From positions 4,566,862-4,630,861 of the forward strand of contig SMSO01000025.1 of the NCBI GenBank assembly GCA_004764695.1: a stretch of 64,000 bases of DNA. The letters run 5' to 3'. Shown here in pieces: positions 14,218 through 50,642 of this stretch (position 1 is the first letter of the stretch; each line of letters starts with the position of its first letter). The translations under genes and the position numbers were made by a program. Below the pieces are notes generated by a model. That model was not told where the DNA came from and did not search any database. It was given only the letters and a program-made list of their open reading frames with translations. This DNA comes from Schizochytrium sp. TIO01. Taxonomy: Eukaryota; Sar; Bigyra; Thraustochytrida; Thraustochytriidae.

Positions 14218-15336
14218 CTAAATTTCATTGCAGTCAACATACTCTCCTACTGGTCGGTTCATATCTCTTCGCACATGCTCATGAGGGAATCGACGACTGC
14301 ATCCGGGTTTGTCGCAGTAAGGTTCTTCTTCGTCCTCACTCTCGTTACCTTTGATTTTCTTTTGATGGCCGGTAAACGTGAGCTCAAGCCATTGAATTAG
14401 TGCGTTCACAGCATTACTCTCGCGCTCGAGTTGTCTGCGTAAGAGCGCCGCCAACGGTTCATACTTGCTACCAGAAAGTGCCAGCACGCAGGGAAAATCC
14501 TTTTCTTCCAAAGTGATGGTACCTACGATCGAAGCCGCCGCTGCACAGAGCGGATGACGTGTCGAAAACAAAGATGGGGACACAGAAGCAGCGATGAACT
14601 CGTTGTTTCCTTGCACACCTCTGAGCAGCGCATCACGCACGTTGCGCATAAGGGGCTCATTTTCATTCTTGGATGACTCGAGCAGTAGGAACCGAACCTT
14701 GGGCTCCGGCAAGTCCGCTCGGCCACCTCCTTGCAGCCATGCGGCGAGGCTGTTCTCTAAACTTAATATAGTAATCGATTTAGCTTGTTGTGCCTGACAT
14801 TCCGCAATCCTTGCTTGTGCAAACTTCTGCAGAAAGTCTTCGTCTTCCATCTCCGCCAGAAACTCGTCGAGCTCTGCATCCGAGTCATCGGCCGCGTCCT
14901 CAGAATCGTCCTCATTGCTGCTCTCTCGCACGTGTTCGCACATCTCTCCGCAGTGAGCACCATGTTCACGTTGTGCAAAAAGCCACGATTTGACAGATTT
15001 AGGATGATCTTCAGAGTTCAAGACCACAACCTTTTGGGCTTCACGTTCAGCCCTCGCCACTGGGTCAACCCTTCTTAAGGTTTTCCGAAGTTCGTTCCAT
15101 TTGCGGCGATCTTCTAGCTCCTTGATGCAGCACTGCTCCAAGCCCGGGTCTACCACGCCCTCGGCTTCCTCGATGAAGACGTTTCCGGAGCTGTGTTCAT
15201 GCTCGCAAGCGCCATGATCGTGACCATGGCCATGACCATGGCTGTGCTCACGGCCCGGTCCATAGAGCCGAGAGTTCAGGTCCTGCTGCTCGCGTTGCAG
15301 TCCCGATAGAGACACGCCTCCAGCTGCGCTACTCAT
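14218..15336 (-). CDS. uncharacterised His-rich protein with possible C2H2-type metal site
   Basis: Intact 372-aa frame, ATG at 15334-15336. I do not recognise the family with certainty. Visible features: a His-rich run (residues 31-48, alternating HG/HD/EH); an acidic segment (about 140-165) followed by FLAEMEDEDFLQKFAQARIAE, which resembles the helix before the thioredoxin fold of phosducin-like/TXNDC9 proteins; a mixed alpha/beta region (about 205-320) that could be a divergent thioredoxin fold without a CxxC; and a C-terminal C-x4-C-x5-H-x-H (C341, C346, H352, H354) suited to zinc binding. A cytosolic metal-binding or chaperone-cofactor role is possible but is inference. Convergent with AP-3 mu (164 bp between stops). 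Confidence 0.75.
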   Translation of the reverse strand: MSSAAGGVSLSGLQREQQDLNSRLYGPGREHSHGHGHGHDHGACEHEHSSGNVFIEEAEGVVDPGLEQCCIKELEDRRKWNELRKTLRRVDPVARAEREAQKVVVLNSEDHPKSVKSWLFAQREHGAHCGEMCEHVRESSNEDDSEDAADDSDAELDEFLAEMEDEDFLQKFAQARIAECQAQQAKSITILSLENSLAAWLQGGGRADLPEPKVRFLLLESSKNENEPLMRNVRDALLRGVQGNNEFIAASVSPSLFSTRHPLCAAAASIVGTITLEEKDFPCVLALSGSKYEPLAALLRRQLERESNAVNALIQWLELTFTGHQKKIKGNESEDEEEPYCDKPGCSRRFPHEHVRRDMNRPVGEYVDCNEI

Positions 15337-25021: not shown

Positions 25022-26356
25022 ATGGGCCGTAAAAAGCAAGGAATCACATGCGAAACATGCAGCTTTGTCCACCCGACGCCCGCAGAGGTACAGGCGATGC
25101 TTGCAACCGCACGAGCTGGAAAGGAGAAGCTCCCGTCAGCTCGACGCAAAACCCAAAACGCCCAGGCTCAGAATGAGGACTCGGCTGAGACACAGAGCCC
25201 AGAGGTTGTTGTACAGGCTGACCGCGTGCGATTGCGTGCCCTGGTTGCGTACGACGGCCGGAAGTTTCACGGCATGCAACGCACACTCTTCTCCAGTGTG
25301 TGGCAACTCAAAACTGTGCAAGGCATAATCGAAGAAGCCATCGCGCATGAGCTTGGAATCTTACCGCCCGATTGCACTGTCGTGGGAAGTCAATTTTCAA
25401 ATGGTGTGACGGTTGAAGATGATAAGTATGCCATTGGGCCTCGATACGGACATAATTTGCCCCAATTTTCATTTAGCATGACCAGCCGCACAGATTCTGG
25501 AGTGAGTGCTCTTCAGCAGGTGATTTGCTTTTGGTTACTGCCAGAACATGCAGATAGGCTTCAAGAGCAAGACGAAGGCTTGCGCCAACGCCTTGAGCCT
25601 CAAGGTGTTATTCTCACAAATCTTGAGAGTGTCTCGGAGGATGAACATTGGAGTGCCCAGAAGTCGTGTCGTGGAAAGCTGTATCGTTACTCCTTTTATG
25701 ATGGCTCAGATGCCCCACCTGAGCTCCCGGTTTTGCATGCATTCAATGATATTTTTAGTCCAGCTCTCCGATCAAGACGCAAGGATCTGGTATATCCTCT
25801 TGACGTGGAGCTCATGGATAAAGCAGCACAGGCGATGGCGGGGGGTGTCTACCGCAATTTTCGACTTTTTACCCGTAGTTCCCGCCGAACAGGAAGGCTC
25901 ACGACGCATCGAATCCTGCATCGTATTAAGGTGCTCCGAACAAAATCCATGTGTCTTGAAATTGACTTTGATACACCAAGCGAGCCTAAGGGGGATTTTG
26001 TGCATTTGCTTGTGGAAGGCGAGCGCTTTCTCTATCTAATGGTTCGTTGCATGGCGCAGGGCCTTATGCAGGTTGGCTTGGGGAAAGTATCCCTCGAGCA
26101 TCTTACTATTGATATGCTGAACCCGCCTGAAGATGCTAGCGAAACTGAACTCGGCAAGATCATTATGCACGCTGCGCCCGGTGAGGGTCTCACTCTCGTT
26201 CGCACATACTACCTTAATTCATTATTCAGCAATGAAGTCCAAGCTTGGACATACAAGCGTGTGCCACGCCCTGCAAATGATTATAAAGGCCCACTGGACT
26301 CTCTACAAGCTAGCCTCGAAGAAGAGTTTGATAACGATGATGATTTCGACGAGTGA
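25022..26356 (+). CDS. tRNA pseudouridine synthase, TruA/Pus family
   Basis: 444 aa from ATG 25022, single exon. It isomerises uridine to pseudouridine in tRNA. After a charged N-terminal extension (1-66) with a CxxC (C10, C13), the catalytic domain starts at VRLRALVAYDG with FHGMQ. The catalytic aspartate is D158 in SRTDSGVSA (family motif GRTDxGVxA). The conserved Tyr motif is KLYRYSFYDG. The C-terminal signature GERFLYLMVRCMAQGLMQVGLGK and APGEGLTLVRTYY closely match bacterial-type TruA endings. The exact target (positions 38-40 of the anticodon stem in TruA/Pus3, others in Pus1) cannot be decided. Convergent with the TIR-like/TPR gene. Confidence 0.9.
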   Translation: MGRKKQGITCETCSFVHPTPAEVQAMLATARAGKEKLPSARRKTQNAQAQNEDSAETQSPEVVVQADRVRLRALVAYDGRKFHGMQRTLFSSVWQLKTVQGIIEEAIAHELGILPPDCTVVGSQFSNGVTVEDDKYAIGPRYGHNLPQFSFSMTSRTDSGVSALQQVICFWLLPEHADRLQEQDEGLRQRLEPQGVILTNLESVSEDEHWSAQKSCRGKLYRYSFYDGSDAPPELPVLHAFNDIFSPALRSRRKDLVYPLDVELMDKAAQAMAGGVYRNFRLFTRSSRRTGRLTTHRILHRIKVLRTKSMCLEIDFDTPSEPKGDFVHLLVEGERFLYLMVRCMAQGLMQVGLGKVSLEHLTIDMLNPPEDASETELGKIIMHAAPGEGLTLVRTYYLNSLFSNEVQAWTYKRVPRPANDYKGPLDSLQASLEEEFDNDDDFDE

Positions 26357-26643: not shown

Positions 26644-28713
26644 TCAGAGATTTTGTTTCATATATGAGCGCATATTTGCTTTCGTGGCAGCTTTTGTAGC
26701 AGTTGAAGTTAAGTGTTTCAAATAACGTCGTGCCTTTTCGGAAGCCGAGTCGTTGGGTCCAAGAGTCTCATTATAGATCTCACTCGCCTCCCGTGCTAAG
26801 TCTACAGCTTCCACCATATCACGACAATCTTCGTGAATATGCGCGATCATCAATAAGGTTTTGGCAACCTCAGAGTGTCGCTCTCCAAAATGTTGGCGCC
26901 TTAGATCAAGCGCCTTTGTAAGCACTCCATATGCGCCCTCAACATCTTTTTGACGCAAATACACACCTGCAACCTTGACAAGAATCTCAGAAATTTTGGG
27001 GTAGTCCTCGCCATGAAGTTTGCGCAGTATAAGAATGGCTTCTCGGTAATGTTTTAGAGCCATCTCGTACTCGTCTTGTCGACTGTACATAATAGCGATA
27101 TTCTGCAAAGTGTTTGCAATAGCATCATGGTCCTCTCCTAAATTTTCTCGAAGAATTTCAAGAGCCTCTTCAGACAGACGGAGCGATTCAGGGAAATCGC
27201 CTTGCTCTGCAAAACAATTTGCCATATTGTTAAGTACGTAGGCAACTTCTGCGTTCCGTTCACCGTGTACAATTTTAACGACAGCAAGATCTTCCCTGAA
27301 CAGCTCAAGAGCTTCATCATATTGACCGAGTTGTCGAAGAATTGACGCGAGGGAGTTACACGCTGCTCCATAGTTGCGATCCTCCGTACCACGAGTTCGC
27401 TTATAGACTTGGCGACAGATTTTAAAGTAGTTCATAGCGTTGTGGTACTCGCCAATCTGACGCAAGAATGTTCCAGCATTTGCAAGCATGTAAGCAAAAG
27501 CTTCGTCCTGGTTTGTGTCAATGCTCTGAGTGCGCACCTCTCGAACTGACGACTCAATGTTGAGCATCAGCCATCGCTTGATACGTGCGTGGACCGCACG
27601 TTTAATAGTGGAGAATCCTCCGCGAACCTTGTGCATTTCATCAAAAAGCATCCCCAGGTCAACGTCATTCTCACATTGAAGATTGGAAAGCTCCATGTGC
27701 TCAGCAGCTTTCAAAAGGGCAAGGCCCTTGCCCGAATCAAGCCAATCTGCTGTCTTCATACGAGCATCTTGCGAAAAAATAATATGAAGGTTGCGGCCGC
27801 CCAAAGCTCCAGCCCACAATTCATACACACACCAAGCCCGAGTTAACGCTGTAGGTTTCTCCCAGCTATCCAAGATTAGCACTGTTTCGTCAAACTTTTT
27901 CACTGCCGGTAAGAGTGTCTTGAGCAAACTAGCGTTTGCCTGTTTACGCGCAGACCCGATATTGTCCTTAGCCTGCATCATACGAGCTTGGTTGTCACAG
28001 AAGACGTCCATCCACACATACATGCTTGAAGAAGGGATGCAAAGCTCCGAGCAGTAATCAGAGAGGCCTAATGTAAGGTCCTCCATAGATGTATCGTAAG
28101 GAACACTCACGTATGTACCTTCAAAAGGATTGCCGAGCGCCTCCGGAAGAAGCCAGTCCGTAAAAAGCGACTTGTCCTTGCGTGTCAAGGGGTAGACAAT
28201 GAATAGGCAAATATCCCGCAAACTCCATGATGAACGATGCTTATGCGCTACGGAGCTCTGGGGGACGCTCATGGGTTGTCCGTGCGTCAAAAACGGACAC
28301 GCGACAGTATATGTGCCCCCATTGGTGCTTTCGAGGCAGAGTGTTGCCCCTGCTGGAATGTTCTGGTCGAGAGGCTCGAGTGTCTCAACAAGTGTTACAT
28401 GCATAGCGCGATGTTCTTCACAAACTTCATGCCACAATGTAATCAATGTTGAGAGTTGAATCCCTTGGTAGACAACGTACTCAGAGCTGAGAACACTTTC
28501 CTTCAGTGAGGACCGCAAGCTGAGGCGCCGTGCGGACTTGGAGATGCTCGTTGATGTTTTGGACCAGCTCGTTCTCCACGATGTGCGGCTGCCATTCGAA
28601 CCCGAGACTACGCTCGACCTCGAATTTTTCCTCTCCTCCGTAACAAAACTCAGATCATCAGCTGACGAGGGCCGCGGGACCAATGGTCTCTCCACGGTGA
28701 TGTTGTTACCCAT
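26644..28713 (-). CDS. N-myristoylation-type TIR-like / TPR (kinesin-light-chain-like) protein
   Basis: 689 aa, ATG at 28711-28713, one exon. The start MGNNIT fits the N-myristoylation consensus (Gly2, Thr6). A Ser/Arg-rich linker (30-75) follows. Residues about 170-400 form a domain with TIR-like landmarks: a hydrophobic strand ICLFIVYPL, WMDVFCDNQ (234-242), VLILDSW, and LTRAWCVYELW (290-300), which resembles the WCxxEL of TIR domains; Glu298 sits where TIR NADases keep the catalytic Glu. Residues about 397-660 hold six 42-residue TPRs of the kinesin-light-chain class, with spaced A/LN, G-Y/EA and GExH patterns. There is no NB-ARC ATPase between the two. Likely a membrane-tethered signalling or scaffold protein; enzymatic activity is inference. 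Confidence 0.85.
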   Translation of the reverse strand: MGNNITVERPLVPRPSSADDLSFVTEERKNSRSSVVSGSNGSRTSWRTSWSKTSTSISKSARRLSLRSSLKESVLSSEYVVYQGIQLSTLITLWHEVCEEHRAMHVTLVETLEPLDQNIPAGATLCLESTNGGTYTVACPFLTHGQPMSVPQSSVAHKHRSSWSLRDICLFIVYPLTRKDKSLFTDWLLPEALGNPFEGTYVSVPYDTSMEDLTLGLSDYCSELCIPSSSMYVWMDVFCDNQARMMQAKDNIGSARKQANASLLKTLLPAVKKFDETVLILDSWEKPTALTRAWCVYELWAGALGGRNLHIIFSQDARMKTADWLDSGKGLALLKAAEHMELSNLQCENDVDLGMLFDEMHKVRGGFSTIKRAVHARIKRWLMLNIESSVREVRTQSIDTNQDEAFAYMLANAGTFLRQIGEYHNAMNYFKICRQVYKRTRGTEDRNYGAACNSLASILRQLGQYDEALELFREDLAVVKIVHGERNAEVAYVLNNMANCFAEQGDFPESLRLSEEALEILRENLGEDHDAIANTLQNIAIMYSRQDEYEMALKHYREAILILRKLHGEDYPKISEILVKVAGVYLRQKDVEGAYGVLTKALDLRRQHFGERHSEVAKTLLMIAHIHEDCRDMVEAVDLAREASEIYNETLGPNDSASEKARRYLKHLTSTATKAATKANMRSYMKQNL

Positions 28714-29005: not shown

Positions 29006-29170
29006 CAAACAATCAATCAATCAATCAATCAATCAAATAAACAAACAAACAAACAAATCGAACCAAATAAATGAATGAATAAATGAATAAATGAATAAAT
29101 GAATAAATGAATGAATGAATAAATGAATAAATGAATCAATCAAACAAACAAACGAAAGAAAGTAAAGAAA
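29006..29170. repeat. compound tetranucleotide microsatellite (AATC, ACAA, AATG/AATA)
   Basis: Consecutive arrays of AATC, ACAA, then interleaved AATG and AATA units, ending in CAAA and GAAA units. Over 150 bp is almost pure 4-bp periodicity. Confidence 0.9.
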
Positions 29171-37602: not shown

Positions 37603-40600
37603 TTAGAATTGAAGAGAGCAAAAGCATGCAACACCAGCACGAATCAAATCAGACCTATCAGAATCGCCGCGTACGTTGATCATTTCAAAAGCCGGATTTT
37701 CGTCTGTAGGCACAGCAATCCACATGACGAAGTTTGTGGAGTGGCCAGTGGTCGACAAGGTACCACGGCGAGACAAAACCTTGTAAACCGGAGCACGGTA
37801 TACATTCTTTGTAACAGGCTTTGCATCTTGCTCTGGATAAAAGTGAATTACAGGCATACGAGTGTACAAGACCTTAGGTTCTGAAGAAGCAAGCTGGTGT
37901 TTATCCTTGTCCCATCGAGCGCCCTCCAAAAATAGACCATAGATGTAAGCGCCGTCTTCTGGTCCCTTTTCAATCTCTGTCTCCAATTCCCGGAGATATT
38001 TTTGCTTGAACGAAGTGGTATCGATTGAAATCTGCAACTTACGAGCAAAGTTCTGCAATTGTCCTGTAAAAAAGGCCTGCGGAAAGAAGAAGCCTGATAC
38101 CCAATACACAGGAGGGATGCCATTGTCAACCCAATTGCGTAGAAAGCCAATTCTCTCACAAAGATCCTTCACCCAAGGCATTAATGGCTTCAGACTTGGG
38201 TATGCTACGCTTTCCCAAGGCACTGGGACCTTTTGAGCATAAATCGCATTCGCCATTTGGTCGAGCTCTGTAGAAAGTACAACAAGACCGGCCAAGGCTC
38301 GGATCAACGATGGTAAGGACTCACGCACAGCAGTGAGTAATCGCTGGTAGCGGCTTACCTCCTGCACAAGAACCGTGTTCATCGATTCGTCATATCGAGT
38401 GGGATAAGCCATTTGAATTGATTCAATGTCGAAATCTAATGGAGGCAGCATCGCTAAAATCTCCTTAGCGATGTTTGTCACAATCTCTTCGCGGGATGCA
38501 GATCCACTGGAGCCCCCAGAGCGGGGCTGCAAAAGCATCAGTGTATCAAACAAATCCGTGGTCTCTTGATTTGCGTATGAAATATTTGCATTCTCGTGCA
38601 ATCCAAACACCTCAGGTTCCGAGTTGACGGGAAGACCATCAATATATTGAAGGTAGCCCTCTTGAAAGTCCTCTTCCATTTCTACGGTATAGTAGACACC
38701 ACTTGCAGAAAAGCTGTATCCCTTCTCAAGTACATTCGGATTATAGAATTGCTTCAAAATCACATCAATTGTACGAATGTCAATGGCATCAGTCACACGT
38801 CCACCATAGTTAATGATAGCAGTCAATGTACGCAGCACGGTGTAAGGAGGGTCCTCATACTTGTCCAAGTATAATTCAAGCTGAGCGCGCGAAATATCCA
38901 AGTCAGTGTCGTTGAACTCGTATGGCACGTTCCATCCTAAAGGACCGAACTTGCGACGCTCCTGAATCAATGCGTGGAAGAAGCACAAACCAAACAACAA
39001 TTTACGGAAGACATGAGGCTTGTTTGTTCGCGAAAGTTCTTCATTGTCCAGATTAAAATATGCCTGCTTCAGGTTCGCGCGCAGACCCTGGGGGGCTCTT
39101 TGGTTAGCTTGATTCCGTTCTGAAGCACAGAGACAGGGAAGATCTTCGATGGCATTGAGGTAAGCCAAAGGCGAAAGTCTTTGTGAAGTTCGTCCGGGTC
39201 AAGATTCTCACATATCTGTTCTAGCTTAGGCATCCAACTACTTGCCAAGTGACAATTCTGCAAAAGAACCCAGTTGCCACGAGCAGCACCCTGCTCAATC
39301 AGTGCTTCGGCTAATGGACCTTGACCTTGACCAAGAGAAATAGCATTCACCTTGCGGTTCTGACCTTCGGCAAACAAAAGGAAGTCCTTTGTAGGATCAC
39401 TGCCCGATGTAAGCACGAAAATAAGAGGCGTCACAACAGATGAATCCTTGTAACATGCCTCAATTTCAAAAGGTGGAGGCTCAATAAAGCGCTGACCAAA
39501 ATGAGCACTGACAAAGAGCTGCACCGACTCCACAATCTTGTCAGGTCGAATACAGCGTACAATACAAAGCTTTTCGAGCATGCTGATCTTCGCATCCAAG
39601 CCATCTGGTAGAGGATCAGTGTGCGCAGTTTCGGAGTCGAAGATCCGCTTCCAACTGTCTAAATTAGCTACAAAACGCTCAGCAAAATCCTCAAATCCAT
39701 GCAAACCCTCTGAAAAGTTCACTACTTCACTCCAAATCTTCTCTGTAACCCAACCTCCTGGCGGCGATTCTCGCAGAGGGCAATCATGTAGTTTGGATGG
39801 GGCTTGACCACTGAGCAAAAACCGCCATGCTACAGGATCTACATTATTGTCACCTTGCAAAACCTTGATTACCAGTGAAAAGGAAAAGAGTAGTTTGTGC
39901 TTCTCAAAGAGACTACGACAGATGTTCTGATATAACGAGTACGTAAAGTAATCGTTCAAAAGTCGCAGTCGCTCGGGGATATCAGCAGGGTTCTCAGGGT
40001 GCTCAGAGTTGAGAATTCCTTGTGAGAACAATTGCACAAAGAATTGCAAGGAGTATTCGTACATGGGATCAATGTTGCGAAGCTCTGAGATTGTAAAAAA
40101 CAGCAAAGAACCTCGGAAAGCTACAGGACGATAACTCTCACGCTCGGCATCAAGTTCTTTCTCAGTTTCCTTTGCCTCTTCTACTTGCTTATTAATCTCA
40201 TTAGACGTGATCTTGGATGTTGCAAGGGTCTCAATGAGATCTTGGTCGTCAAGAATATTACCGGTCGAGTTACTCAGCATGTGCAGAATCGTATCTTCGA
40301 TGTCCTTAAGTTCTTTGGCCATGCGAGCATTGTTCACCACAAGAGCATTTTTCTTCTCCTCCTTTTCAGGCAATTCATTAACCATGACAACACCGAGGAG
40401 CTGATCCTCAAGACCTTGAGGAGTAATGCTAAAGTTCAATAAACTGACCTTGACTGACACCTCGGGAGGGTAGTGAGGGTTTGGAAGTTTGGTGGTCATA
40501 AAGAACTTAAAGTTGTCATTGTATGGAATTGTGGAGTCTCCCAGACGCATCATCATCTGAGAGCCTTGCTTGAAAGTTGTTTGCTGAAGGACAGGTTCAA

Positions 40601-43600
40601 GAGCAGCGTCGAGCTTATCACTAACGTTTTCCATCAGAACCCATTTACCAAAACGAATACCATTCTCGAGCACGCGCAAGAGATTTTTATCACTCTGCTT
40701 GACAACCTCAATACCGTTAGGTGCGCTTCCACGGTCGCGGCCCATGTTCTTGATGTAACGATTGGCCTGCGTTTGGGGATCAATTAACAAGGGCCAACGA
40801 CGGGCCTCGGAAATAACAATACCATTCTGAATGGAATGTGTATCAGAAGGAAGCCCAGCGACATTCCAGCTTCGAATCGTCACCGGGTCGCCGAGGGTTT
40901 CAACAATGTCAACCCCTTCTGTATGTGGCAATTCGAGACGCTTCAAATCTACGAGCCAGCGCTTAGTCAGCTCTTCACGGTAGTTGGATGTGAAAGGACC
41001 CAAGTAAGCAATACAGCCACTCGAAATAAGAACATCACCAATGAGGTTCACGTAATCAACGTTTAGCTGTTCAATACTTGCAGTCCAACGATCGCGTTCT
41101 CCGCCGAGACCACCAATAAGCTTTTGTGCGCGTTCAAGCCGTGCAGCACACTGCTCAACATCGCTCTCAAGCTGCTGCTTCTTGGTATTGGACTTCTCGA
41201 AATCAGCTTCAAGTGCTGCGATTTGGTCCTGAACGCCCTTGAGGCGACCACGAGCATCATTCAAAGATTTCATAGTCTCGTCAAGCTCCGCCTGTGCTTC
41301 AGCAAGCAACGCCTTCTTTGGCTCAACCGCCTTTGCGACGTTGTGATATTTGTGCATGGCACGTACCCACATGCAAATGGCTGTACAAGCCTTACTAGCC
41401 TTTTCAATCTCTGCAGGAGTGAACTCAGGCATGTCGATATACGGAGTAATCTGTTCAATAGTTTTCTCCGAGATATTGTCCTTGTCGAAATTCATCAAAT
41501 CTTGCAACAACTGGTTAGCGTTTTGCAAAATTGTACCCTTTGCCGCTACCCAGTAGTCCTTGACCTTTGCACCCATATTATCAGGATCTTTCACCATAAT
41601 GGGCTTGACGTTAAACATGATACATGCGGCCTCCATGGTAAGCTTTACACCCTTTGGAGGAGTCTTCAAGGACTTCACCTCATCAAGGTCAGATTTTTTC
41701 AGCCTATTGAGACAAGCAACAGCCTGGTCAAGAGCTGGTAAGGCCTCATCAAGGTCGCGTTGAGCATCATCTGCAATTTCCTTTGTCTTGCTCGCTTTCT
41801 TCTCAGCTGCGGCTTCTTCACGAGCGACAATCTCCATAGTTTCTTTGGCACCCTCTTTATCCACTGCGATCTTTTTTATCATTTCCTCGACCTCTGCCTG
41901 GGTTTTGACCAGAGTAGGTTGCATGGCAGTTAGCTCAGTTTGCAAATCTGCGACCATGGAAGATGTACTCAAGAGTTTGTCAAGGCCAACCTGAAGACGT
42001 TGCACCAAGCCACCGACTTCCACACGTTTCTTCTGCAAGAGAACCTTGAAAGTATTTAGCAACTCCAGATATGATGTTGGTGTTACATAGTTGTAACGGC
42101 GCAGAGAGTTGAAGAAGTCTGTACTTGCCTCAGCAACACTCTGATGAAAAACCTTGAACAGCTCTACAATATTGTGTAAGTGATCACCAAGTTTCAAGTC
42201 GACCTCCTGCATGATTCCCATGCCTACACTACGCAAAGCTTCTTCGGGCCATTCTGAGAACCAATCAATCGCACAGCAATTCACTAGCGAGGGAAACATT
42301 CGCAAGCGCTCCCGGAAAATGGGCGAAGGGCTCATACAGAGGCACATATGGATATTGCGCTTCACACGAAGAAGATACTGAGCATAAATGTTGATTTTTG
42401 TTGGAGGGATGCGCTTCTTGGTACAGTCGATCTTACAGGTTGTCATGATAGACTCCATATCTTCGGGCGCATACAAATTAGGTACATCACCACTATTGAG
42501 AATTCCGTTGATATCCTCAAGCATTTGCTCATCAATAATTTGAGTGTCAACAAATATAAAAGCAACCTGTTTGTCTTCAATGCCAGCCTTGAGGAGCGCT
42601 GTCTTGACATCATCGCGCCACTCTGTCATGCCATAGCCTTTAGAAATCTCAACTTGGTAGAGAAAGTAATCGCAAATAAAAGACGAAAGCTTTGTCAAAC
42701 TTTGGCGTCCTGAACCTCCAACACCAAGCAAAAGTACATTTCCTAGCGGCTGCCGAAGAACACGTGTGATACGGCAAATGTGTGTGATAGCATCCATGAA
42801 CATTACCAGATTCATGGGTTGCTTCGACTCAGCATTATAATCTACAAGGTACTCCTCGACGAGGGGAATTAAACCAGGCAAATTAGTGACTAGCTCATAA
42901 GATGACTCTCCTGGAACGAGGAAGTCGCAATAAAGCAGATGAGTGCGGTCACCAAATACATCTTCAGGGGAAGCATTCATGCGCTCTTTGATGTGCATCT
43001 TGAGCTGACCATCAAACCAAGTGCGGTCTTCATTGTTAATGAGACGATCCCCGAAGACACGGCGAGACTCATGAACCCACAGTCGAATCATGTCCTCCTT
43101 CGCTACGACAACTTTAGGATTAACCATGAGCAAACCTTGGAATACTTTACCTACATCACGCAAGTTGTACGTGTAGTGTGACTTGGCTGGTGTAGGCAAA
43201 AGCTCGCGACAAATTGTCTGAAAAACATCAATTGTTGATTTGACAAGCTTTGATCCAAGGTCATAAAAGCTAGAATCCATGTTATTGCTCTTCACGAACG
43301 AAGAGACAATGGTTTCGTAGATGATCTGCATTGCAGCGTTGTCCATTTCGGTATAGTTGATGACGGTATAATGGCGGATAAGACGAGCCGTGACTGGGTT
43401 GCGGCCACCTCCAGGAGGGCCCATTGCACCACACATTGTAATATCAATGAGTTTGCGGAAGGAAAGTGCTTTACGGTCATACCAGCCTCCATACGTAAAC
43501 CACTGACGGATAATTTCAATCGGGGGCTGAGCAAAGTATTCCTCGCGCTTTGGCATGTTTAGATCATCAATGAAGATAATGTACTGCTTGCCTGCAGGCG

Positions 43601-46600
43601 GGCCGAACACACCCTTACGACGCTTTTCACATTTGCCATCAATCAGATCTTGAGTCTGGTTTGCACTGGTTTGGGCCGAGAAGGTGAGCATTAGAGGAAT
43701 AAAGTTTGCCGGAAGACCTGTACTAATGTGCTTGTTAATATTAACAGTTTTACCTGTTCCCGTTGGGCCAGTCATGAGCATGTGCTTGCCGTTGCGCATA
43801 AGGATATCTATGAGATAAGTATAGCAAATGGAGTCTCTAGTAGGCACGATTGTTTCGTGAAAGCTAAGCTCAGGATCACATACAAACGGCTTAATTGTCT
43901 CCATCCAGCGCGTCCATCGTTTTTTCGGAGGAGGTTTGCCACCATCATCAGCTGCATAAGCATCTTGAACAGCTACAGGAATGCTCCAGACAAAATCATA
44001 GATTGTCAACACAGTGCCATCATCTGCAGCTTCAGGAAAGCAGAATTCACAGTTGTGTGAATCCATCAAATTTCGCATGTATTGATCAAAGCGTTCGCGG
44101 CCCTCACGATCAACTGTACAACACAGAGACCATACAGCACAGAACAGAAAGATGGGTTCAAGGTCCTGGAGAAACTCTTTGACCTTTGCCTTTGAGACAG
44201 ACTCCCCGCCTTCCTTTACTGCGAATGGGGCAAAGTAGCAATCTAAGCATTTTAGTAAGCTTGCGTTAAGTGCGTTGTCACAAGTTGGCACAGGCTCCTT
44301 GAAGTTACGACGCAAAAACCAAATTAGGCTCTTGACATACTTGTCGAAAAGTGTTTGAAGCTTTTTGACAAAATCGGGCGTACGTGTTGCTTCAGGGAGG
44401 TTCTCTAGCCAACTGCGTTGGACTGGCTCGAGGCCTAGGGTATGTGGCTCCATGTACACAATTCCGACACGAGAAACTGTGGCTGGAGATGCAACCTGGA
44501 GATCCTCAACTTCAAACATCATGGTCATCTCAGGACTGAGAGCGACAATTTCACCAGAGTTCAAACAAAGCTTCTTGTTATCGTCCAGGACAGTATTCAT
44601 GTTTTCAATCCAAATAGCATCTACGGGACCATCAAACATGATCCACTTACGGTCCGGAGTTGTACTCTTTGCGCACTCACGAACGAGAAAAGCAAGAATT
44701 CCATCCTGCCACTCATGGGTGTTGGGGTCGAATTCGCCATAAAGCTGACCCATAGTAATACTCTTGGGATTGACAGTGTGCCGCACAACATTTTCAAACG
44801 CAAATCCCTCGATACCCCGACTCTTCAGCAAACAAAGTGTCTCATCAAGACACTCCACATTACGTGACTTACCACCACCAGTGGGACCCACCAACATGAG
44901 ACCGTGACGCACAACGATGGTTTCATAGAGCTGGATACATTTCTGCATGAAAAAGGGTACCGGTTGAAGGGTCATTTTCTCAGACGTCATTTTCAAACAC
45001 TTGAGCAGCTCACCATAATCAATATCCGGACGCTTGCGTCCAGGAAACAAATCAGAAATGATACCTCTGAAAAGAGGCAAATCATGACTGAGGAATTTTG
45101 GAAGATTTACATCTTGTAGAGCACGAAGCAGAAGAACCTCTTCTTCAGTGTCCGGTTCCGCCGCCTTCAGGTTTCCTGCTGCAACAATTGTAGTCTTGAC
45201 GGCACGCATACCATAATCATAATGATCCTGACTTGACAGCTGCTCTGAGCAAAGCTGAAAGGTAGCAACCATCTTCTTTGCACAGGTACGAGCTTTGGCA
45301 TAACCAAACGAGTAAAGCATAATCTCACCAATAAGAGCGTAGTCAGGCACCATCATTGCTACAGGACGGAAAAGTGCCTTGAGATTGTCGGGAAGTTCAG
45401 TACGACCAGCATAACCAGGATTCATGGTAATATATACTGCAAACTGATCATTCATGTTGATCATAGTACCCTCAAACTCAATCCTATCTAGGCCTGCTTT
45501 TGCAGCATGCTGCAGAGTCATGATTTGTTGTGCAACCACGGAAAGCACTTCTACATCGATACGGTTAAACTCGTCGAAGCAGGCCCAGGCACCACACGAT
45601 CCAAGTCCCTTGAAGAATTTGCCCATGGCAAGATAATCGAGACCATCAGAGCAGTTGAAAACGACACATTGTTTTGCCAGGGCCTTGGCCAAGTCCTTTG
45701 TGGTTTCGGTTTTACCTGTACCAGCAGGTCCTGCAGGAGCTCCACCTAACGTCATTTGAAGAGCACCCATGAGTGTTAAGTAACATTTATCAGTCAGGGG
45801 CGTAATCACAAGACGGAAAGAGTTACCAAGATATTCGTAACCATATGGACGACGTGAAGACACCATCATTACACGCATGTCTCCAGCTAAAGCTTCTCCA
45901 TCCTCCCAGTAGAAGCGCATTTGAGAAATCCAGAGGAATTCCTCCTTGTTGCTCACGCGCTCAACCGCAAGTTTTTCGGTCACATCACGTGCGTGCACAT
46001 CAATGACAGTAAGAGCAGAAAGGGTGATACGAGCCATACGCTTGAGCTTTGGGTCTCGAACAAGTTCGACCATGTCAGAAATCTGTCGAACTTGCTGTTC
46101 AAAGCACTCTTGTACACCATCGGCACCCTTAGATTCCATTCCTTCTTCAATCTCTCTGGTCCAGTGAAATTGAGAGCCGTTAATGGCGCACTGACCAGCA
46201 ACCTTTTGGATCCAGTCCGTACGAGGAATTTGGACGTACTCAAGCATAGATGCGTAAAGAACTTCCTTCACAGATTGTTTCATTGTGTCATCAAGCATTG
46301 TCATCCAGTCCTCGACGTTGCGGCCTGCTGGGTCAATTTCTTGAGCAAGCTTAACTTGCTCTCCCTCGGAAGAGAACATTTCTGTGATAATTTGGTTTTC
46401 ATCAAAGTGTACACGCTTGATACCTTCGAAACACTTCTTCAAGTGCGGCTGAACCATGGTCGGATCCTTCGTTTGAGACAGAATCTCAAGCAGTTCCTCG
46501 TTTGACAAAAAGTAGAAGCGGGCAAAACCAGACCTTTTCGTCTCCAGATAATCAGAAAGACCTTTACTCACCATGTCAAGAAATTTGTTAGATTCGACCC

Positions 46601-49600
46601 ATCGATCTAACAGGCTTTCGCTTGCACAAAATTTGATAGCGCATGGCTTTTCTACAGCTGCCTGCAATGTCTGACGCCAATTTTTATCAACCGTAGCAAA
46701 ACGCTTACCCTCAGTGGGAAGTTGCTTGTTGATATCTGGCGAGTCAAAAATTGGCTGCAGATACAACCAGTTGCGCTGCACAGCCATCCACTCGTCGAGA
46801 ACATCGTTCACTACACTCAAAGTGTGGTTCCACTTCTCTATGCGCTCTTCAAAAGGACCTTTAAAAGCGCTAAACATCATGGCTTGTGTCATAGTGACAT
46901 GTTCATCAAGCAGAGCTTGCAACTCGTCAAAGCCATGCAGGACATATGTTCCGGTTTCCTTATAAGCAGAAACGTTGAGGTCGACACCGCTCCATTCGCG
47001 TTCCATCTTGTCAAGCGCGACCTCAATCTGAAACTCCTTCCCAGCCACCTCACCTGCCTTCGTGATCATGTCTGCCTTAGCATGATCAGTAAGAAGACCA
47101 AGATCATCGGACATAAGTTTCTGCAAAGTAAATTCAGGATCATCGGGGTCAAGTACAAGCTGTGTCGTGTAGCCAAGTTTGCTGTTGACCGCCTTCCAAT
47201 GGCGTTCTCGCATGCCTGGGTTGCGCAAGGAAATGACGAGCGGAACAACAGGCTTGAAATGCTCTACTTGAGACTTGATGGTTTCGGCAGACGCCACAAT
47301 TTCTGGAAGCTCAACCTTCTCAAAGTATTTTACAGAGCGGATCAAATTACGATGGTAGTCGTAAACTTCCTGTTCGATTTCTTCGGCATTAAGATCAACA
47401 AATTTTTTCCCCATCCAGACTTTGCTATTCTTGAGCCATGAATCAATTGAGTTCCACAAAGTCTCATACGGCTCAAATTCCTTGGTCATATTAGTCACAG
47501 CGTCATAGTTTGTGAGCTCCTGTTCAAACAGAATTTCGCGGGAATTGAAGCGTCTGGCATCTTCTTCAGCTTGATTAAGGCGCGCGCGGAGATCACGCAC
47601 CCGCTTTGCAATCATTGTAATTCGGCCAAGATCAGCGTGCTGTGCTAGACCTTCGATATCCTGCTCAAGCTGTCCTAAGGTGTAAGTGAAACCTTCTTGC
47701 TCTTCCTGTTGTTGCTCTTGATAGCTCACCCTTGTGACTTCGTTTCGAGCCTCGGCCTTCTCCAAGGTTTCTGCAACCGCCTTTGGTGCTCCGAAGATAC
47801 ACCAAGGAAGGTCGATATCATCTTGCTTTTTGAACTGGAACCAGTAAGAATCAAGGATTGCGATTTTGTTGAATACCTTGCGTGCGTCAGCTTCAAGTGC
47901 GCGAACTTTGGTTGGGACCTGCTCCATAAACTGCTCCACAGCGGTAAGCTCCTCGATATTTTCGACAGGTTTTTCGATCTCACGACGAATGTCGTTGTAC
48001 TGCTCCATAATAAAGTTCCCCACTTCAACCGTGCGAGTAGCTAAGAGGTTTTTCAAACGATCAACGAGCTCTTGATGCTTATCCTGAAGTAATCGTCGCA
48101 GTGTGCTACAGGAAACTGAAAAGATACCTACGCAGATGGAGTTGGGAATAATTTCACCAATTTCCTCCTTGGCTGCGATGTGAGTGTCGATGAGTGCCTT
48201 GATTTTCTTTGGGTCGAGCATAGCAGGACGCTTTTTACTTCCATCTCCGCCCTTCTCGTCATCGTCATCTTCCTCTTCTTCTCCACCATCACGGCATGAG
48301 CGCTCCACTTCAGCCATGAAATCATCGATTTCGAAATTAAGGAACTCAAGATGCTGATTGTACTGTGCAAGATACTCGCCAAGGGGCTTCACAGCACGTG
48401 ACATCGATGCCTCGAGGTCCTCTGAAAGTGCCTGAACCCACTGTTCATGCTGACTGACAGCACGGATAAGGGGCTCATCCGGCCAGAAAAGCTTATCCAT
48501 GACTTGCTTCTCTACGCGAGAAATGTTCTGCAGGGAAGAAAGTGCTTTGAAGAAGAGCTGTACAGGTACTTTGGGGAATACTTTGGGATCCATGTTGTAT
48601 TTAATAACATAACGGCCTTGTCCCTCTTCGCTATTGCCAGAGCCACCACCTGCGTTTGCCCCATCCCCTTCTGCATGGTTCTCATCATCATCTCCATCTT
48701 TACTGCCCTGATCCTCGTCCTTAGCAGAGTTACTCTCACCATGCTCGCCTTCTGGAGATGTTCTTGCAGTTCCCATAGAGTTTGCCTCTTTCAGTGCATC
48801 ATTGGCTTCTGTCCCTGTTCCTGTTGCTCCGTCTTGTCCACTCTCGCCGGACCCAGTGTCGCGTTCTTCCACTACAAGATCTAGGGCAAAAAGGGGGCCC
48901 TGACGCTTTGATTCGTCAGCCTTGTAATCAAACTTAATCACCACAGAGGTAGCAGATTTCACTGTGATTTGTGCGTCTGCTGAGCGGCGAAGAAAGTCTA
49001 CGAAGTCTTCGAGAGAAGCCACCGTCATGAATCGCATGGAGTCTTGCATCATACAATTGACCAGAGTAAAGAATCTTTTAAGCTTGCTGAAATTATAGAC
49101 CTCAGCGCTGCTCTCACGAAGGTTAAACCAGCCCTTCCCGACATCCTTGAAGCTTGCACGAACGATGTTTTTTACAGCCATTGTCCACTTGCCCTTGACG
49201 AACGCGACAGTATTGGCTGCAGCTGTTGTTTGAAGATGCTGAAACTCATCTAGCTTTACACTTTTGGCAATTGTGGTGTTAAACAAATGATACTGCAGAA
49301 CTTTTGCACACTCGAGTCCAATAGTTTCAAGCGCCGCCATAACTCCATCTTGAGTGTAAAGTGATTTAAAAGAAAAATCTTGGAGTCTCTCATTAAAATC
49401 GTAGACCGGTAGCTTGGGGCGTGGTTGTGATGCTAATGTCGCAGCATCGAGTGGTTCTGTAGCCTTAAGGAGGTCAACATGTGGCAAAAATTCTTGCAAG
49501 AGACTTGCAAGCATACCATCGGGGGTACGTTTCGATGCAGTTGAGCTGGAAAAGTTCCCGGTCTTGTTGGTACTGGCGATGCGATTCAATGTCTGATGGA

Positions 49601-50642
49601 AGATGACCTTGTTCATGGCGCTAGCAAAGGCTGCTCGCGCTTCATCCAAAAGTTTTGCTTTTAGGCTTTCCTTCTCACTGGCATTTTTCTCCCGAAGTTT
49701 AGTTTGAATGCGCTTGGTCTGCTGTTGATCGAGTGTGGCAATGCCTTCGATTGGCATGGAGTCTAGCGTCAAGTAGAAATTGAGCAATGTAAGAGCTTCA
49801 TTGCGCCGTTTATGAGCATTTGCTACACGGTTGGCGAATTGAATTGGGGATTCTCCTAGAAGGTAGACATCGAGGCGTGATCGATGTTCACGGGTACCCT
49901 TACTACTAGATTCCGTCCATTCGATCTCCAGAGCGCCTCCATTTTCTGGGGACCAGGATCTAACGATGCAGGAGATCCACATACCATTCTCGTGGCGGGC
50001 TTTCGCCGGGATGCCTACAAAGTCTCCTGAAATTGGATCACTTCCCAAACGCTTCCATGTTTCTAAAGTGCGCTCTTCATACTCAGTGTCATCAAAGGGA
50101 AACAACGGCAGTGCCTCTTCAGCACGGTCATCTTCTTGTTGTGCTTGTGCAGATTGTGTTGATGGCATTCTGTCTTGTAGAAGTTTGGCAAGGTCCCAGG
50201 AAGCGTAAATTTTTTTGAGGCGCTCTACCTCGACGCGTCGCGGGGCACGACCCGGAAGCGGTCTGTGCGGAACCTGGACTTTGGGTTCGCTTGCCCTGGC
50301 CAAAATTGAAGTTTCGTCACGCACATCATTGCTGCGATCTCCTGACCACAGGCTTGCCCTTCCCCGGAGCGGCACAATGCCCGGAGGTACAGGGCGAAAG
50401 TTCGTGGCTTTGGGTGATTTTTGCACAGGACTTGTCGGAGACCGAATCTCGCGTTCGTCCTTGTACTCATCAGACTCCTCACGTATGGCGATAGACTCGC
50501 TCATAATTCCACGCTGCGGTTCATTTTGCGCAGGTGGAGAGACGAGGTCATGAATCTCAGTTTTTTGTCCCTTAGAGGATTTCGATGACGCTGTATCGAC
50601 CTTGAGCGACGACGCTGTCGATGCCGACGCCGAAGAAGACAT
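37603..50642 (-). CDS. axonemal-type (inner-arm) dynein heavy chain, one-base frameshift near the C-terminus
   Basis: Start ATG 50640-50642; about 4346 aa if the frame is joined. N-terminal tail and linker occupy about 1-1600, with acidic low-complexity inserts near 590-677 and 785-805. The AAA+ ring shows P-loops in AAA1 PAGTGKTE (about 1640), AAA2 GPTGGGKS (about 1920), AAA3 GPTGTGKT (about 2295) and AAA4 GVGGSGRQS (about 2640). The stalk coiled coil is about 2850-3200. AAA5 has SWNVAGLPSD (about 3265). The C-terminal domain contains NTVLVQE, PSLKPL, SGFFFPQAF and GTLSTTGHSTNF. The frame breaks after KLTKEPP, at a run of six G (39090-39095, + strand): the next frame resumes QGLRANLK exactly as in other dyneins, so one base is missing. 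Sequencing or assembly error is likeliest. Best fit is the DNAH1/3/6/7-type group. Implies flagellated cells. Confidence 0.95.
39090..39095 (-). other. homopolymer G6 (C6 on coding strand): frameshift site in dynein
   Basis: Coding strand reads GAG CCC CCC AGG in the upstream frame, whereas continuation needs GAG CCC CCn CAG GGT. One extra C in the run restores the conserved EPP-x-GLRAN sequence. Homologous coding sequence continues on both sides without a gap. Confidence 0.9.

What the first reader, a model, noticed from the sequence alone, without database searches (positions are those of the whole stretch)
26644..28713. TIR-like/TPR protein keeps the glutamate aligned with TIR NADase catalysis and an N-myristoylation start
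Seen: MGNNIT start, a TIR-like domain ending in TRAWCVYELW with Glu298, and six kinesin-light-chain-type TPRs, with no NB-ARC between. Known: in plant TIRs the Glu of the WCxxEL motif is catalytic for NAD cleavage. Inference: a membrane-tethered TIR-TPR signalling protein, possibly an NADase in cell-death or stress signalling in a free-living protist.
Basis: partly seen in the sequence, partly recalled or inferred. Interest (0 to 1): 0.6.

Follow-up and report, generated by a model that had tools for sequence, protein, structure and literature searches.

The report
Protist TIR/HET-like TPR protein family
This gene encodes one of about 32 related proteins in a single-celled eukaryote that join a very divergent TIR-like (immune and cell-death type) domain directly to a protein-binding repeat, and the conserved residues suggest, but do not prove, that the domain is an enzyme that cuts NAD.

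Summary
The 689-aa ORF at 26644-28713(-) starts MGNNIT, carries R292-A-W-C-V-Y-E298, and has six 42-residue TPRs (404-655). No sequence library recognises the middle domain, but an AlphaFold2 model built on 23 paralogues (pLDDT 87, pTM 0.85) is TIR-like. Every shown structural match spanning its alpha/beta core is a TIR entry (RUN1, RPP1, SARM1, a ThsB complex). All are at Z below 8 and Foldseek PDB E above 0.001, so the support is moderate. Glu298 lies on helix C, where TIR NADases keep their catalytic Glu. W234, D236, R292, W294, C295 and E298 are unchanged in 30 of 32 family members. The two exceptions lost the Asp and the helix-C motif together, as pseudo-enzymes would. Myristoylation is possible but not a family trait. 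NAD cleavage is untested and remains an inference. Verdict: new variant of a known kind.

The parts
26644..28713 (-). whole ORF, 689 aa, single open frame
28696..28713 (-). MGNNIT start, possible N-myristoylation site (fits G-x-x-x-S/T; acidic residue E8 is unfavourable)
   Evidence: sequence; not kept in most paralogues; N-myristoyltransferase present in genome
28495..28713 (-). residues 1-73, low-complexity basic/Ser-rich N-terminus with ARRLS-type sites, low model confidence
28237..28404 (-). residues 104-159, SH3-like beta barrel conserved in the core subfamily
   Evidence: VIA-align Z up to 7.5 over 52 residues, 1.7 A; paralogue alignment
27568..28137 (-). residues 193-382, TIR/HET-like alpha/beta domain
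   Evidence: AlphaFold2 model, fold searches
28000..28020 (-). YVWMDVF (232-238), strand B motif W-x-D, matching HET 'WIDxxCxNQ' and TIR 'W-x-D'
27820..27840 (-). R292-A-W-C-V-Y-E298, helix C motif R-x-W-C-x-x-E
27820..27822 (-). codon of Glu298, the proposed catalytic residue
   Evidence: alignment to TIR_2 Glu
26749..27504 (-). residues 404-655, six 42-residue kinesin-light-chain-type TPRs
26644..26748 (-). residues 656-689, C-terminal capping helix, and stop

Best explanation
The protein is a cytosolic (possibly membrane-attached) sensor-effector of the TIR/HET superfamily. The six TPRs bind a partner or ligand and hold the TIR/HET-like domain inactive or bring several copies together. Assembly of the TIR-like domains forms an active site in which Glu298, helped by W294, C295, R292 and D236, cleaves the nicotinamide-ribose bond of NAD(P)+ or a related nucleotide. 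The product, or the loss of NAD, acts as a stress or cell-death signal. Shown here: ORF, TPR register, a family of about 32 genes, near-invariant motif residues, coupled loss of those residues in two paralogues. Predicted here: TIR-like fold and SH3-like barrel. Inferred: catalysis, substrate, regulation by TPR, signalling role, membrane attachment.
For: Paralogue-based AlphaFold2 model, pLDDT 87.3, pTM 0.85. Foldseek top PDB match is the plant TIR-NLR RPP1, with B. cereus TIR and SARM1 also in the top 50. VIA-align: RUN1 TIR Z 7.0 over 127 residues, 3.3 A; SARM1 Z 6.7 over 113, 3.1 A; RPP1 Z 6.6 over 129. Best viral-library match is a Tetraselmis virus TIR/WD40 protein, E 2.1e-4. Six motif residues intact in 30 of 32 genes despite 15-29% identity to the window protein; L036 and L037 lost the Asp together with the helix-C motif while keeping long open frames. 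hhalign with the genome's own TIR_2 domains puts strand C, Cys295 and Glu298 on the TIR_2 strand C, Cys and Glu; the score is reached by 5 of 300 column shuffles. W at Glu-4 equals SARM1 W638/E642, both needed for full activity (PMC8266388), and a Cys next to the catalytic Glu matters for plant TIR 2',3'-cNMP synthesis (PMC9153377).
Against: No enzymatic test. No Pfam or PDB sequence match for the domain. Structural Z-scores below 8 and Foldseek PDB E above 0.001 can reflect a common alpha/beta arrangement. The profile comparison by its own probability is insignificant. Glu298 could not be placed in a pocket. TIRs with the conserved Glu can lack NADase activity (PMC13142454). [quoted passage not shown]
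Confidence: 0.5

Rival explanations
1. Non-enzymatic TIR/HET scaffold: the W-x-x-x-E and W-x-D residues hold the fold together, and the domain signals only by homotypic assembly, with the TPRs recruiting partners.
For: WxxxE was found to be structural in TIR proteins BtpA/BtpB (PMC4203976); TirB/TirD keep the Glu without detectable NADase (PMC13142454); Dyrka et al. proposed an adaptor role for HET (PMC4986451).
Against: L036 and L037 keep the rest of the domain and long open frames without the motif, so it is not strictly needed for the fold; polar R, D, C and E near-invariance at low overall identity is more typical of an active site.
Confidence: 0.27
2. Enzyme of the same fold with another substrate, such as an N-glycosidase of nucleosides like nucleoside 2-deoxyribosyltransferase, or a 2',3'-cNMP synthetase, and not an NADase.
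For: Viral-library matches include several nucleoside 2-deoxyribosyltransferases; the invariant Cys beside the Glu matches the Cys linked to cNMP synthesis in plant TIRs.
Against: The best matches are TIR proteins; the W(Glu-4) and C(Glu-3) spacing is that of TIR/HET; there is no 2-deoxyribosyltransferase family hit.
Confidence: 0.15
3. Kinesin-light-chain-like cargo adaptor in which the N-terminal half is only a binding module.
For: The best solved matches of the C-terminal half are kinesin light chain TPRs.
Against: This TPR type is widespread; the solved-structure matches cover only the TPR half and no kinesin-specific family model matched; the N-terminal half is a conserved family domain of its own.
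Confidence: 0.04

Closest known systems
Fungal HET domain (PF06985) and its HET-like relatives reported in stramenopiles, haptophytes, choanoflagellates and green algae (Dyrka et al. 2014, PMC4986451)
   Same: W-x-D-x-x-x-x-N-Q block and R-x-W-x-x-x-E block (HET motif wording from own knowledge; tested only through); N-terminal effector position; coupling to 42-residue TPRs; large multigene family
   Different: No Pfam HET match for the window protein; no NOD module; extra SH3-like barrel
Plant TIR domains (RPP1, RUN1, L6/L7), including TIR-NB-ARC-TPR (TNP) proteins
   Same: Predicted fold, Glu on helix C in W-C-x-x-E, TPR at the C-terminus as in TNPs
   Different: No NB-ARC, no sequence-level family match, plant EDS1 partner not found in this genome (the search could not prove absence)
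SARM1 TIR
   Same: Predicted fold; W-x-x-x-E with Glu642
   Different: ARM-SAM regulation in place of TPR; no significant sequence similarity
TIR_2 (PF13676) proteins in the same genome, with Roc-COR, SH3 or ankyrin partners
   Same: Same genome; W-x-D and C-x-x-E in matching order
   Different: Recognised by Pfam; the window family is not, and shares no significant sequence similarity with them

Membership tests
TIR domain superfamily | match to a curated TIR family model (PF01582, PF13676 and relatives) | tested here: not met
   no match even at E 10
TIR domain superfamily | flavodoxin-like TIR fold | tested here: met
   predicted model only; all seven shown rows spanning the alpha/beta core are TIR entries, Z 6.3-7.0; moderate strength
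TIR domain superfamily | profile-level similarity to TIR sequences | tested here: inconclusive
   hhalign not significant by itself, 5 of 300 shuffles reach the score, alignment in register
TIR NADases | catalytic Glu on helix C, conserved | tested here: met
   position on helix C from the predicted model; conservation
TIR NADases | Glu lies in the nucleotide pocket | not testable with these tools
   model coordinates are not exposed
TIR NADases | cleaves NAD+ | not testable with these tools
   needs assay
HET domain (PF06985) | Pfam gathering score 22.5 bits | tested here: not met
   no match for the window protein; the best family member, L040, scores 16.7 bits over only 21 residues
HET domain (PF06985) | HET blocks WIDxxCxNQ and RxWxxxE | tested here: inconclusive
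   pattern present; identity of the second block with HET rests on own knowledge
NLR / TNP receptor | central NB-ARC or NACHT between effector and repeats | tested here: not met
   no NB-ARC or NACHT match in the protein
N-myristoylated proteins | N-terminal Gly with permissive residues | tested here: inconclusive
   MGNNITVE fits the loose pattern; only 2 of 31 paralogues start Met-Gly; enzyme present

The most novel reading that the evidence does not exclude
A protist without a large NB-ARC receptor set runs an NLR-free sensor-effector repertoire. About 32 TIR/HET-like enzymes are fused, most of them directly, to TPR sensors (with at least two pseudo-enzymes among them), and together they are a link between fungal HET cell-death domains and TIR NADases, with NAD cleavage as the shared chemistry.
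Probability: 0.22. Interest if true: 0.78.

Novelty: new variant of a known kind. Interest (0 to 1): 0.46.

Why it matters
How fungal HET domains kill cells was an open question as of 2024. This protist family keeps HET-like motifs on a predicted TIR fold, with a Glu where TIR NADases have theirs. Its genes are mostly single open frames, the fold is predicted with good confidence, and natural variants have lost the motif, so it gives a tractable protein set for testing whether HET and TIR share NAD chemistry. It also shows that current family libraries miss a sizeable TIR-like gene family.

Tried and rejected
Single-sequence AlphaFold2 of the whole protein left residues 1-405 below pLDDT 50, useful only for the TPRs. 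Pfam searches with the domain, 17 paralogues, a consensus and divergent members gave no TIR, and HET only sub-threshold in L040. PDB sequence search with the profile: none. The genome's 42 TIR_2 matches do not include this gene. The EDS1 search rang nowhere and is uninformative. Considered and rejected: plain kinesin light chain (matches only the TPR half), NLR (no NB-ARC), and the claim that myristoylation defines the family.

Full report
What is there. The ORF 26644-28713 on the minus strand is a clean 689-codon frame starting MGNNIT. Glu298 sits in T-R-A-W-C-V-Y-E-L-W exactly as written. The C-terminal half is six TPRs in a perfect 42-residue register, 404-655, with a capping helix, closest among solved proteins to kinesin light chains. 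The gene lies tail to tail with a tRNA pseudouridine synthase gene (25022-26356 +).

A gene family. Searching the window's own genome (64 Mb, 37 contigs) with residues 165-400 finds some 30 places. Further queries extend this to 32 genes or gene pieces analysed here. Most core members end in TPRs. Several sit in arrays, e.g. four on C24 within about 18 kb and five on C30 between 7.02 and 7.53 Mb. Identity to the window protein is only 15-29%. The genome's 42 Pfam TIR_2 matches are a separate set that does not include this gene.

Residues. In 30 of the 32, W234, D236, R292, W294, C295 and E298 are all identical. L036 has W-x-E in place of W-x-D and no R-x-W-C-x-x-E. L037 has D236N, R292D, W294E and C295F but keeps the Glu. 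Both have frames of over 1000 codons. The coupled loss suggests that the strand-B and helix-C residues act as one site that can be discarded without losing the protein. Caveats: the paralogues were found by similarity to a query that contains the motif, so conservation is somewhat overstated, and 22 of the sequences also built the profile. L017 is a fragment; with L061 (two in-frame TGA) it looks like one broken copy.

Fold. Using 23 sequences of the family, AlphaFold2 gives a confident model for residues 60-420, pLDDT 87.3, pTM 0.85. The order is strand, helix, SH3-like barrel (about 104-159), then an alpha/beta domain with strand A at 200-203, strand B at 232-234, strand C at 276-281, helix C at 293-304 carrying Glu298, and strand D at 309-313. 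Foldseek's first PDB match is RPP1 (E 0.018), with a B. cereus TIR and SARM1 E642A further down. In the VIA-align table all seven rows that span the alpha/beta core are TIR entries: RUN1, three SARM1, two RPP1, and a ThsB-Tad3 complex whose chain identity I did not check. Z is 6.3-7.0 over 109-135 residues. These Z-scores are below 8, so on their own they are moderate; consistency across the list and the order of motifs raise my confidence in a TIR-like fold to about 0.85. In the viral library the only match below E 0.001 is a TIR/WD40 protein of Tetraselmis virus 1.

Sequence link to TIR and HET. No curated family matches the domain. Profile comparison with the genome's own TIR_2 domains is not significant by hhalign's probability, but restricted to the core it scores 18.3 against a shuffle mean of 12.3, reached by 5 of 300 shuffles, and aligns strand C, Cys295 and Glu298 with the TIR_2 strand C, Cys and Glu. 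A bridging member, L040, with YVWIDILCVNQ and RRSWCLWEI, gives the only named hit, Pfam HET at 16.7 bits (cut-off 22.5, E 0.0099), over the WIDxxCxNQ block. Dyrka et al. 2014 already reported HET homologues in stramenopiles and other protists and argued that HET is related to TIR up to helix C (PMC4986451). The present family is best seen as a divergent protist branch of that HET/TIR superfamily, with plant-type TIR only a more distant comparison.

How it may work. By analogy with SARM1 and plant TIRs, whose NAD cleavage needs self-association and the helix-C Glu (PMC8635717), the TPRs would sense a partner, the TIR/HET-like domains would associate, and Glu298 would support cleavage of NAD or a related nucleotide. 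In SARM1, W638 (Glu-4) and E642 mutants are among those whose kcat falls 100- to 400-fold (PMC8266388). Against this, WxxxE can be structural (PMC4203976), and TirB and TirD of Dictyostelium keep the Glu without detectable NAD processing (PMC13142454). I put enzymatic NAD cleavage at about one half.

Membrane anchoring. MGNNITVE fits the loose myristoylation pattern, and the genome has an N-myristoyltransferase (E 4.4e-71). Only L011 (MGCTKS) and L030 (MGSCMS) also start Met-Gly, so it is at most a trait of individual members.

Known versus new. TIR/HET-like genes in stramenopiles, and uncharacterised divergent eukaryotic TIR clades (PMC13142454), are known in outline. What is added here: a coherent 32-gene set invisible to Pfam, its confident fold prediction, an SH3-like barrel before the TIR-like domain, and natural motif-lacking paralogues.

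Noticed in passing
L005, L003, L007 and the other PF13676 matches: The genome holds at least 42 ordinary TIR_2 matches: L005 joins TIR to a Roc-COR (COR-A) region, L003 to an SH3 domain, L007 to ankyrin repeats.
   Followed up: partly
L036 and L037/L038: Two long-frame paralogues lack the W-x-D and R-x-W-C-x-x-E motif (L037 keeps only the Glu), like natural pseudo-enzymes.
   Followed up: yes
L023, L020, L024, L016 (G000 C24:1312957-1331086): Four paralogues lie in one array of about 18 kb; five divergent ones (L027, L028, L031, L033, L034) lie on C30 between 7.02 and 7.53 Mb.
   Followed up: no
L017 and L061 (G000 C36:2869514-2870189): A paralogue in two pieces with two in-frame TGA codons, probably a broken copy or one with an intron.
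   Followed up: no
window 29015-29165: Run of tetranucleotide repeats (caat, aaac, aatg/aata) about 300 bases upstream of the start codon.
   Followed up: no
window 37603-50642: The dynein heavy chain ORF (39069-50642 -) and the next ORF (37603-38679 -), which carries the Dynein_C domain, look like two exons of one gene.
   Followed up: partly
window 14218-15336: 372-aa ORF with a His/Gly-rich stretch (HGHGHGHDHGACEHEH) and no Pfam match.
   Followed up: no
fold search of the domain model: The best viral structural match of the family is a TIR/WD40 protein of the algal giant virus Tetraselmis virus 1.
   Followed up: no
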